In this document: positions 53,344-57,960 of the stretch, piece by piece | Numbering within the stretch: position 1 is the first letter of the stretch | How the letters are laid out: each line of letters opens with the position of its first letter | Origin: Paraburkholderia flava | GTDB taxonomy: Bacteria; Pseudomonadota; Gammaproteobacteria; Burkholderiales; Burkholderiaceae | Assembly (NCBI RefSeq): GCF_004359985.1 | Contig: NZ_SMRO01000002.1 | Coordinates: forward strand, 1,936,536-2,000,535 | Direction of reading: 5' to 3' | Length of the DNA stretch: 64,000 bases | Program-made: the position numbers and the translations under genes | Notes under the pieces: generated by a model | Databases searched by the model: none | The model's input: only the letters and a program-made list of their open reading frames with translations | What the model was told of the DNA's origin: nothing

Positions 53344-53393
53344 CGCTGCAAAAAGGGAGCGTCTCGTGCTCCCTGTATCACCTCTGCAGCCTC

Positions 53394-53418
53394 AAGGGCC
53401 GTCCTCGCGACGGCCCTT
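53394..53418. terminator. Hairpin between YidB-like gene and hipA
   Basis: AAGGGCCGTC / GACGGCCCTT forms a 10-bp stem between two convergent genes; CGTCTTC follows on the plus strand. Weak U-run but a stable stem. Confidence 0.6.
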
Positions 53419-53438: not shown

Positions 53439-54806
53439 TCAAGCACCCGCTGCCGACAGCTTCCTCACCATGTCGGCAATGATCGTGTGCCGGATGACCC
53501 GCATGCACATCGCTTCACCACCCAGTGTCGCGGCAAGCACAGAAGCGCCAGCGGCAAGCCGCGCGTTCTCCGCTTCGACTTCGGCGTAAAGGTCGTCGGC
53601 AGCGCGACCGATCGCGTTCACCTGCGCATCGAGCAGACGCACCGCAGTGCCTCGTGCGATGCCGAGTACGTCGGCGGAACGCAGCATCAACTCGCGGTTC
53701 ATGTCCGCGTAATAGCGCACGCCGAGCACGTCCCACGCGAACGACACGCGCTCCGGCCAGTCGCGCTTCTGATACGTCGGCGTGCTCCACGCTGCGACGC
53801 TCAGCAGATCGTAGAACGGCGCGAGCTGAACGCCTTCATGCGACACGAAGAAGCTGAGATTCTTCAGATGCGCATCCGAGTTGCCGATCAGCACGTTGAA
53901 CACCAGCCACGAAAACAGCCGCGTTCTCGCCGCCGCGCGATTGCGGCACGCGTGCGCAATCGCGGCGAGTTGCTCGACGCTGCCCTGCTCGTACTTGAAC
54001 GTGCGCGCGAGATCGAGCAGTTGGCACGCATCGATCGTATGGAGGCGTTGCCACTCACCATCGCGCTCGGTCCGGTCGAAACGATCGACCAGATACACCG
54101 GCGCGGGCACATAGCGCCGATGCACGGGTGGCACCTCCAGCTTCAGCCGCGCGGCAAGCGTCATCACGAACCATTCGTCGATGACCGAATGCGGATAGTC
54201 GCCCTCTTCCTGATGATTCGGCTTGAGGATGTGCGTCGACGGCGTTGCACCGGCCGGCTCGAACAGCTGGTCGTCTTGCAGGACGACCGCCAGCTTGTGC
54301 TGCGCGCCGGCCAGCGACATGCGCTTCAACGCAGCGTGCGTGAGCGGCACGCGTGGCAGCGCGTCGATCCGCGCGGCGAGATCCGCGTCGGCGAGTGGCC
54401 GCAGTCCTTCGCTTTGAGTCGTGCGAGCGCCTGCGGGATCCGGCGGCAACAGCGTGACCGATCCCGCCGACTCGGCACCGTAGTGCGCGAGCAGCGCGAA
54501 CGCATCGGCTTCGTTGCGGATATTCGCATCGCGCGCAAGCAGTGCACGCTGTCCTTCTTCGGGCAACAGATTGTCGAAATACCATTGCACCGACCGACGG
54601 CTGCTGCCGTCGCGCAGCGCTTCGGACTGAAGCGGCAGCGCGGGGCTCAGCGGATAACTGTCCGCGCGCGCGAGCCAGTCGGCGGCATAGGTGAAGCTCC
54701 AGATATCGCCGTCGTCGCGCAGCACGCCGACGTCGATACCGTTGATGCTCGCGACAAGGCTACGCGCCAGCGGAGCATTCTCCGTTGTGTGTTCGTCCGC
54801 CGTCAT
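53439..54806 (-). CDS. hipA: HipA-type serine/threonine kinase toxin
   Basis: 455 residues. HipA phosphorylates aminoacyl-tRNA synthetases such as GltX, arresting growth and promoting persistence. N-terminal couple_hipA-like domain (about 20-120) and kinase domain: SLAGAQHKLAVV, STHILKPNHQEEG, catalytic loop NVLIGNSDAHLKNLSFF with Asp, and metal Asp in APFYDLLSV. All kinase residues appear intact. The ATG overlaps the hipB stop (ATGA), so antitoxin precedes toxin. Convergent with the YidB-like gene. Confidence 0.92.
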   Translation of the reverse strand: MTADEHTTENAPLARSLVASINGIDVGVLRDDGDIWSFTYAADWLARADSYPLSPALPLQSEALRDGSSRRSVQWYFDNLLPEEGQRALLARDANIRNEADAFALLAHYGAESAGSVTLLPPDPAGARTTQSEGLRPLADADLAARIDALPRVPLTHAALKRMSLAGAQHKLAVVLQDDQLFEPAGATPSTHILKPNHQEEGDYPHSVIDEWFVMTLAARLKLEVPPVHRRYVPAPVYLVDRFDRTERDGEWQRLHTIDACQLLDLARTFKYEQGSVEQLAAIAHACRNRAAARTRLFSWLVFNVLIGNSDAHLKNLSFFVSHEGVQLAPFYDLLSVAAWSTPTYQKRDWPERVSFAWDVLGVRYYADMNRELMLRSADVLGIARGTAVRLLDAQVNAIGRAADDLYAEVEAENARLAAGASVLAATLGGEAMCMRVIRHTIIADMVRKLSAAGA

Positions 54807-55108
54807 GCCGCATCCCCGGAAGGACGTCGCCGTGCACGCGCCTCGCGCTTCGCGAGCTTATCGCGTTCGTGCGCGAGCAACGCAGCCGCCGCGTCCGGCA
54901 GATCGACGCTCACCTTCACGCCCAACGATTCGAGCACGCGAAAGAGCTTGCCCCAGTGCACGCCTTCCGCACCGTTTTCGACCTTGCCGAGGAAGCTCTC
55001 GCTCACGCCGATACTGCCCGCCGCATCGTCCTGACGCAGGCGCTGCGCCTTGCGGGCCGCGCGAATCGCGATGCCGAGATCGCGTGGTGTTTCAATGTCC
55101 GTTTTCAT
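54803..55108 (-). CDS. hipB: HipB-type antitoxin, XRE-family repressor
   Basis: 101 residues from the ATG at 55108 (AAGGA 6 bases upstream); an upstream Met at 55123 is not needed. Helix-turn-helix at about 15-65 (LGIAIRAARKAQRLRQDDAAGSIGVSESFLGKVENG), then a Lys/Arg/Ala-rich C-terminal tail. HipB neutralises HipA and represses the operon by binding palindromes; four such sites are visible upstream, the first covering its own ribosome binding site. Overlaps hipA by 4 bases. Confidence 0.9.
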   Translation of the reverse strand: MKTDIETPRDLGIAIRAARKAQRLRQDDAAGSIGVSESFLGKVENGAEGVHWGKLFRVLESLGVKVSVDLPDAAAALLAHERDKLAKREARARRRPSGDAA

Positions 55109-55112
55109 CGTG

Positions 55113-55134
55113 AATCCTTGCATTTACACGGATT
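55113..55134. promoter_or_regulatory. hip operator O1 (AATCC-N12-GGATT)
   Basis: Palindromic arms AATCC (55113-55117) and GGATT (55130-55134) flank 12 bases. It overlaps the hipB ribosome binding site. Centre 55123.5. Confidence 0.7.
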
Positions 55135-55139
55135 TTTCT

Positions 55140-55145
55140 ATTTTA
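55140..55145 (-). promoter_or_regulatory. Candidate hipBA -10
   Basis: Minus-strand TAAAAT lies between O1 and O2, about 32 bp before the hipB ATG. No clear -35, but the place where it should be falls inside O2. Confidence 0.4.
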
Positions 55146-55162
55146 GCAGACCGAAAACCAAT

Positions 55163-55184
55163 AATCCGTACGATTGCACGGATT
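55163..55184. promoter_or_regulatory. hip operator O2 (AATCC-N12-GGATT)
   Basis: Arms AATCC (55163-55167) and GGATT (55180-55184), extended to ATAATCC and GGATTAT. Its 22 bp are almost identical to O3 in inverted orientation. Centre 55173.5, 50 bp from O1. Confidence 0.8.
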
Positions 55185-55212
55185 ATCGATCCAAGCCGTG
55201 TGCCTATAGAAA

Positions 55213-55234
55213 AATCCATGCAATCGTACGGATT
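55213..55234. promoter_or_regulatory. hip operator O3 (AATCC-N12-GGATT)
   Basis: Arms AATCC (55213-55217) and GGATT (55230-55234), extended to AAAATCC and GGATTTT. It matches the reverse complement of O2 at 21 of 22 positions. Centre 55223.5, 50 bp from O2. Confidence 0.8.
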
Positions 55235-55263
55235 TTCAATCAACAATAGGCCATATGATCCAT

Positions 55264-55285
55264 TATCCTTGCAATCACAAGGATA
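55264..55285. promoter_or_regulatory. hip operator O4 (TATCC-N12-GGATA)
   Basis: Arms TTATCCTTG (55263-55271) and CAAGGATAA (55278-55286), 9 bp perfect, with CAATCA between. TATCC/GGATA ends resemble E. coli HipB operators, which have a shorter N8 spacer. Centre 55274.5, 51 bp from O3. Confidence 0.75.
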
Positions 55286-55290
55286 AATTT

Positions 55291-55325
55291 AAAGAAAAAG
55301 GGCAACGAATCGCTTCGTTGCCCTT
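55291..55325 (-). terminator. clpB terminator
   Basis: AAGGGCAACGAA / TTCGTTGCCCTT is a 12-bp perfect stem with a 4-base loop; on the minus strand TTTCTTT follows. It lies between clpB and hip operator O4. Confidence 0.88.
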
Positions 55326-55362
55326 CCAGGTCATACCGGCGCCGCAGCGCCGCTCAATGCAC

Positions 55363-57960
<2,598 letters not shown>

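What the first reader, a model, noticed from the sequence alone, without database searches (positions are those of the whole stretch)
55113..55285. Four regularly spaced operators upstream of hipBA
Four palindromes with 5-bp arms and 12-bp spacers occur with centres at 55123.5, 55173.5, 55223.5 and 55274.5, that is 50, 50 and 51 bp apart. O2 and O3 are near-identical but inverted, O1 covers the hipB ribosome binding site, and O4 has the TATCC/GGATA arms of E. coli HipB sites. E. coli operators use an N8 spacer, so an N12 spacer with this even spacing may mark a different geometry. Even phasing suggests a repressor array or looped complex, possibly giving a steep on/off switch.
Basis: partly seen in the sequence, partly recalled or inferred. 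Interest (0 to 1): 0.72.

Follow-up and report, generated by a model that had tools for sequence, protein, structure and literature searches.

The report
Fixed 50-bp operator array before hipBA
Four likely repressor-binding palindromes sit almost exactly 50 bases apart in front of a bacterial toxin-antitoxin gene pair, and over a hundred related stretches of DNA keep this distance even where the letters between the sites have changed, which points to a protein assembly of fixed size that controls the pair.

Summary
Four 22-bp palindromes lie at 55113-55134, 55163-55184, 55213-55234 and 55264-55285 (steps 50, 50, 51) between clpB and hipBA, and are the only four close matches in the 6.97-Mb genome. 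The 'N12 spacer' holds a core conserved in relatives: AATCCnTGCRATYGCAnGGATT.

The spacing is conserved far beyond this window. In 97 of 100 homologous upstream windows the strongest repeat has a lag of 49-51 or 98-102, against 17 of 277 control windows. In 62 non-redundant 50-class loci, 117 of 118 adjacent steps are 49-51, while spacers are 29% identical between loci. Loci with other operator sequences keep the step. E. coli has 28, 39, 28, and its HipA clade mostly 26-28. Pitch follows HipA phylogeny.

Operator sequence goes with the HipB recognition helix, so HipB is the likely binder. Most likely this is an autorepression array of HipB or HipA-HipB units, O1 over start site and RBS, O2 over the -35, the step set by contact between neighbours. 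Binding, repression and contact are inferred. Site number (2-4) is not conserved. New variant of a known kind.

The parts
55113..55134 (-). O1: operator palindrome AATCCGTGTAAATGCAAGGATT; holds the hipB ribosome-binding AAGGA and lies where transcription should start
55163..55184 (-). O2: operator palindrome; its hipB-proximal arm falls on the -35 position
55213..55234 (-). O3: operator palindrome, 95% identical to O2 inverted
55264..55285 (-). O4: operator palindrome with TATCC/GGATA arms
55140..55148 (-). possible extended -10 element TGCTAAAAT in the O2-O1 gap
   Evidence: position, read by eye; the consensus promoter scan reported none
54803..55108 (-). hipB, 101 aa, HTH antitoxin and presumed repressor
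   Evidence: HTH_31 and HTH_3 over the Pfam cut-off, TIGR03070 below its cut-off; AlphaFold2 model with recognition helix at residues 37-44
53439..54806 (-). hipA, 455 aa, kinase toxin
   Evidence: HipA_C and HipA N-terminal domain over the Pfam cut-offs; E. coli S150, D309 and D332 equivalents present
55296..55327 (-). terminator-like hairpin between clpB and O4
55363..57960 (-). clpB, upstream neighbour on the same strand
   Evidence: TIGR03346 over its cut-off

Best explanation
O1-O4 are operators of the downstream HipB and form an autorepression array of fixed pitch. Each palindrome takes one HipB dimer, alone or as a HipA2-HipB2 complex. O1 lies over the expected start site and the ribosome-binding site and O2 reaches the -35, so filling O1 and O2 shuts the promoter that lies between them; O3 and O4 extend the array upstream. 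The 50-bp step is kept because neighbouring complexes touch at one fixed distance. Shown here: the sites, their confinement to this promoter, conservation of the step across diverged spacers, and the association of operator with recognition helix. Inferred: binding, repression, cooperativity and the contact itself.
For: Best-pair lag 49-51 or 98-102 in 97 of 100 operator windows and 17 of 277 control windows. The HipA clade that holds the window, defined by sequence alone, has 55 of 57 non-redundant rows of step class 50. In 62 50-class loci 117 of 118 steps below 80 are 49-51, spacer identity between loci 0.29, site identity 0.59. A sample chosen by likeness to S. oneidensis HipA: 26 of 28 loci with hipB show steps of 48-51, one of them as 99. 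O1-O2, O2-O3 and O3-O4 share the step. HipB VSESF goes with TG in 12 of 12, VSENF/LSENF with CA in 32 of 34; other helices have other operators. Only four close sites in the genome. -35/-10 pair at -37/-14 from the O1 centre in 27 of 61 loci. In E. coli HipB represses by cooperative binding to four operators (PMC3376134, passages).
Against: No binding or repression data. Only 3 independent pairs for helix/operator covariation, 2 agreeing, 1 not differing, and 2 of 34 Asn loci do not fit. 25 of 277 control windows also pass the 24.4 threshold, so single weak arrays may be chance. 50-class loci were labelled by these steps. The -10 match overlaps the conserved O1 arm, so it is partly built in; the window's own promoter is weak. 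L073, L218, L264 and L267 depart from the rule. HipB is below the TIGR03070 cut-off.
Confidence: 0.7

Rival explanations
1. DNA looping between phased operators: only helical phase matters, and outer sites loop onto inner ones.
For: The step is nearly constant, about 4.76-4.82 turns at 10.5 bp per turn, so phase is constant too. The E. coli-like subclade has mixed steps of 28 and 37-39.
Against: Looping should tolerate changes of one helical turn; 0 of 118 short steps of 50-class loci lie at 38-41 or 59-62.
Confidence: 0.12
2. The step is set by the promoter alone: O1 and O2 must flank the -35/-10 region, and the outer sites are passive.
For: The gap between sites is 28 bp, about the size of -35 plus 17 plus -10; the best hexamer pair lies between O2 and O1 in many loci.
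Against: O2-O3 has the same step (39 of 50 are 50 bp, all within 48-51) with no promoter there to fix it.
Confidence: 0.1
3. Relic of tandem duplication of a 50-bp unit.
For: Regular step and similar sites.
Against: Spacers within one locus are unrelated: identity 0.273 in 63 pairs against 0.257 shuffled, while sites are 0.79 identical.
Confidence: 0.02
4. The sites bind a regulator other than HipB.
For: No binding has been shown; HipB is below one family cut-off.
Against: Close sites occur only here in the genome; such arrays stay with hipB in loci with other neighbours (the ClpB end was found in 14 of the loci held); operators go with the HipB helix.
Confidence: 0.04

Closest known systems
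E. coli K-12 hipBA operators O1-O4 (TATCCN8GGATA)
   Same: Four palindromes before hipBA bound by HipB, cooperative autorepression (PMC3376134, PMC3920265, passages); similar ATCC/GGAT arms.
   Different: E. coli arms are 8 bp apart, steps 28, 39, 28; here 12 bp with a conserved core and steps 50, 50, 51. E. coli HipA is in another clade of the tree.
Legionella HipBST operators
   Same: Three evenly spaced operators before a HipB gene, bound by HipB in EMSA (PMC10653801, passages).
   Different: [quoted passage not shown] three-gene HipB-HipS-HipT system. Here 22-bp sites with 28-bp gaps and a two-gene system.
Caulobacter hipBA1 and hipBA2 promoter repeats
   Same: Series of palindromes before hipBA proposed as operators (PMC7029023, PMC8545095, passages).
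   Different: Described there as spaced consistently with the E. coli complexes; their HipAs are in Hip Tree clade I with E. coli (PMC8262856, passage). Their steps were not measured here.
Shewanella oneidensis HipBA (PDB 4pu3, 4pu4, 4pu7)
   Same: Nearest solved relatives by sequence of both HipA and HipB; 26 of 28 loci found with its HipA have steps of 48-51.
   Different: The S. oneidensis promoter itself was not seen and Wen 2014 is not held, so its own step is unknown here.

Membership tests
hipBA type II toxin-antitoxin module | HipA kinase with N-terminal and C-terminal HipA domains | tested here: met
   HipA_C 171.5 bits (cut-off 30.5), Couple_hipA 73.3 (22.5); catalytic equivalents of S150, D309, D332 present
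hipBA type II toxin-antitoxin module | HTH antitoxin gene directly upstream | tested here: met
   HTH_31 34.6 bits (cut-off 27); but TIGR03070 couple_hipB 56.2 bits is under its cut-off 71.65; genes overlap by 4 bp
hipBA type II toxin-antitoxin module | toxicity of HipA and neutralisation by HipB | not testable with these tools
   needs expression assays
E. coli-type hipBA operator array | TATCC-N8-GGATA sites | tested here: not met
   no N8 site in the window; arms are 12 bp apart; only O4 has TATCC/GGATA arms
E. coli-type hipBA operator array | centre steps 28, 39, 28 | tested here: not met
   50, 50, 51 against 28, 39, 28
E. coli-type hipBA operator array | cooperative HipB binding and autorepression | not testable with these tools
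   needs EMSA, footprinting and reporters
Legionella HipBST operators | separate hipS gene, 18-nt sites with 53-bp gaps | tested here: not met
   HipA has its N-terminal domain fused; 22-bp sites with 28-29 bp between them

The most novel reading that the evidence does not exclude
HipA-HipB proteins build a nucleoprotein array whose pitch is a quantised structural constant of each HipA clade (about 27, about 50, and a 31/45/31 class), independent of operator sequence. In the 50-bp class each HipA2-HipB2 unit would occupy one 50-bp step side by side; in the 27-bp class a second row could interleave on the other side of the helix (2 x 27 = 54). Repression and toxin storage would then rest on HipA-HipA contacts of a geometry other than the one behind E. 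coli persistence mutants, which fits the different residues at the E. coli D88 and D291 positions in 50-class HipAs.
Probability: 0.35. Interest if true: 0.75.

Novelty: new variant of a known kind. Interest (0 to 1): 0.62.

Why it matters
The operator work found in print here concerns E. coli (28, 39, 28), Caulobacter and Legionella HipBST. A widespread second array with a stricter step, in loci from beta-, gamma- and alphaproteobacteria, suggests that E. coli is not the model for all HipBA systems and gives a direct spacing test of how neighbouring HipA-HipB complexes touch. The pitch is also a DNA signature with which HipBA systems can be classed and their operators found without knowing the site sequence.

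Tried and rejected
Considered and rejected or disfavoured: tandem duplication, phase-only looping, pitch set by the promoter alone. A four-site rule was rejected. An idea that E. coli's 28 and 39 and this 50 differ by whole helical turns was not kept: the 27-bp clade and the 31/45 class do not fit one rule. The phylogenetic test of helix/operator covariation was underpowered. Foldseek with the HipB model gave no match at E 0.001 or better, although HipB structures rank 2-4. Schumacher 2015 and Wen 2014 are not held (also Schumacher 2009), so what they say of other species' spacing is unknown to me. No report of a conserved 50-bp step was seen in the listings and passages of the literature searches (open-licence library only; 9 of 10 searches used).

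Rows dropped before counts: hipB not found next to hipA in 5 of L001-L105 (L020, L065, L088, L091, L099), leaving 100, and in 13 of 131 loci; L009 left out of the tree as a copy of L082 and L106 in favour of the intact L237; HipAs cut from 211 to 137 rows at 85% identity. L120, called 50-class by one lag of 102, was judged an artefact and left out of the 50-class counts. Of the places listed, 30 came as loci and 100 more were fetched; the others were not looked at. The 100 windows include near copies. The 24.4 threshold passes 25 of 277 control windows.

Full report
What is there. The minus strand reads clpB (57960-55363), a terminator-like hairpin (55327-55296), four palindromes, then hipB (55108-54803) and hipA (54806-53439). 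The four 22-bp sites lie at 55285-55264 (O4), 55234-55213 (O3), 55184-55163 (O2) and 55134-55113 (O1), steps 51, 50, 50. WATCC-N12-GGATW occurs four times in the window, all here; the other spacers from 4 to 19 give none; 20,000 dinucleotide shuffles of the region never gave more than one. In the 6.97-Mb genome the consensus with up to three mismatches hits these four places only.

The genes. HipA passes the Pfam cut-offs for HipA_C and the HipA N-terminal domain; HipB passes HTH_31 and HTH_3 but not TIGR03070. The best sequence matches among solved structures are S. oneidensis proteins for both (organism name). AlphaFold2 gives HipB five helices and two strands (mean pLDDT 88.6); the helix at residues 37-44 is the recognition helix by its place in the HTH (assignment mine). 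Genus: L082, from the window's genus, looks like the same genome as L009, titled Paraburkholderia phosphatilytica (equal match values, equal upstream DNA printed), so the window is probably from that GTDB genus; this is inference.

Conservation of the step. One search gave 80 HipA loci (the best 80 of 255 stretches that encode a relative) and one search found HipA in 25 of 144 genomes of the genus. A site matrix trained on the closest loci found sites 49-51 bp apart in most of the others. To do without a motif I scored every pair of 22-mers for direct identity plus palindromy. The best pair had a lag of 49-51 or 98-102 in 97 of 100 operator windows and in 17 of 277 control windows from the same loci; the other three were L056, L073 and L105 (lags 41, 32, 48). 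In 18 paralogous loci of the genus the trained matrix finds nothing. Seventeen of them (L084-L104) have another operator (type TTCGTACCCGATCGGGTACGAA) with steps of 50-51 or 101-102, and L105 has a third with 48-49.

Pitch classes. A phylum-wide search found HipA_C in 156 of 398 genomes. From it and one E. coli locus 131 loci were examined; hipB was found in 118, and 68 of these passed the 99% shuffle threshold. Their steps: 71 at 26-28 (nine of them from one locus, L191), 19 at 30-31, 24 at 49-51, and 25 elsewhere. On a FastTree of 137 non-redundant HipAs the clade that holds the window has 57 rows: 55 of class 50, one below threshold (L218, steps 51, 29, 50) and one other (L073). The E. coli clade has 44 rows: 30 of class 27, 11 below threshold, 2 other and one called 50 (L120, judged an artefact); the E. 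coli row was labelled by hand from its 28, 39, 28. Seven further 50-class rows (L108, L109, L127, L141, L143, L186, L197) lie outside the main clade, so 50 may be the older state; the deep forks are drawn open and FastTree warns of long branches. A second sample, chosen by likeness to S. oneidensis HipA, gave steps of 48-51 (L239: 99) in 26 of 28 loci with hipB, two of them (L244, L262) below threshold; L264 and L267 departed; L261 is the window itself and L254 the locus of L152.

Selection on length. In 62 non-redundant 50-class loci there are 118 adjacent steps below 80: 48 once, 49 eight times, 50 eighty-three, 51 twenty-six; four more are 101, as if a site were skipped. None is at 38-41 or 59-62. 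The spacers are 29% identical between loci, the sites 59%. These loci were labelled by their steps, so the tight spread is in part by choice of rows; the 55-of-57 clade count is not. Spacers within a locus are unrelated (0.273 against 0.257 shuffled).

Who binds. In 46 loci of the AATCC type, HipB with Ser at the second position of the recognition helix goes with TG in the operator core in 12 of 12, and Asn with CA in 32 of 34; the exceptions are L012 and L039, both Cupriavidus. Fisher's test gives 2e-9 but ignores kinship; only three independent pairs exist, two agreeing, one not differing. More distant helices go with quite different operators. With the confinement of close sites to this promoter this makes HipB the likely binder.

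Mechanism. In 27 of 61 50-class loci the best hexamer pair sits at exactly -37 and -14 from the O1 centre, that is between O2 and O1. The -10 match overlaps the conserved O1 arm and so is partly built in; the TTG at -37 to -35 lies outside the sites and is enriched (T 35, T 35, G 32 of 61). In the window a possible extended -10, TGCTAAAAT, lies at 55148-55140 and the -35 position falls on the O2 arm; the consensus scan reported no promoter. O1 and O2 can thus block the promoter and O1 also the RBS. O2-O3 and O3-O4 share the step, which asks for a cause beyond the promoter; contact between neighbouring complexes is the simplest. The absence of one-turn slips speaks against phase-only looping. 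For E. coli, HipA dimerisation within operator complexes is thought to matter for hipA7 (PMC7029023, passage). At the E. coli D88 position 59 of 61 50-class HipAs have Gly or Ala (27-class: Asp in 16 of 30); at D291 51 of 61 have Ala (27-class: Asp in 29 of 30). At G22 the classes do not differ clearly (Gly in 44 of 61 and 21 of 30). This fits a different contact surface but does not prove it.

Known or new. Several HipB operators per promoter are known (E. coli), evenly spaced ones too (Legionella HipBST, PMC10653801, passages), and Caulobacter repeats were noted (PMC7029023, PMC8545095, passages). I saw no report of a conserved 50-bp step or of pitch classes in the searches of the held library; two key structural papers are not held. 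I rate it a new variant of a known kind.

Noticed in passing
L181 (G000:C1:614107-616393): The window's genome has three HipA_C matches. A second HipA falls in the E. coli-like 27-bp clade; its own array is below threshold, lag 52. One genome may hold both geometries.
   Followed up: partly
window 55363-57960; L001-L011, L082: hipBA lies directly downstream of clpB in the window and in 11 further distinct Caballeronia/Paraburkholderia-type loci, so the insertion point is shared although HipA of this subfamily is rare in the genus.
   Followed up: partly
L191: Ten sites in a row at 27-bp steps before hipB, the longest array seen.
   Followed up: no
L201, L206, L225, L223, L171: A third geometry: steps 31, 44-47, 31.
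   Followed up: no
L116, L149, L163: Loci with weak HipA scores show steps 40, 46-48, 40 or 86; perhaps HipBST-like systems with yet another spacing.
   Followed up: no
L267: A hipBA-like locus whose strongest repeat is a pair of palindromes 40 bp apart about 250-280 bp upstream, unlike its kin.
   Followed up: no
window about 53393-53418: A G+C-rich inverted repeat follows hipA (seen by eye; not scanned).
   Followed up: no
L106: In one E. coli strain hipA is annotated with an internal stop while hipB and the operators are present.
   Followed up: no
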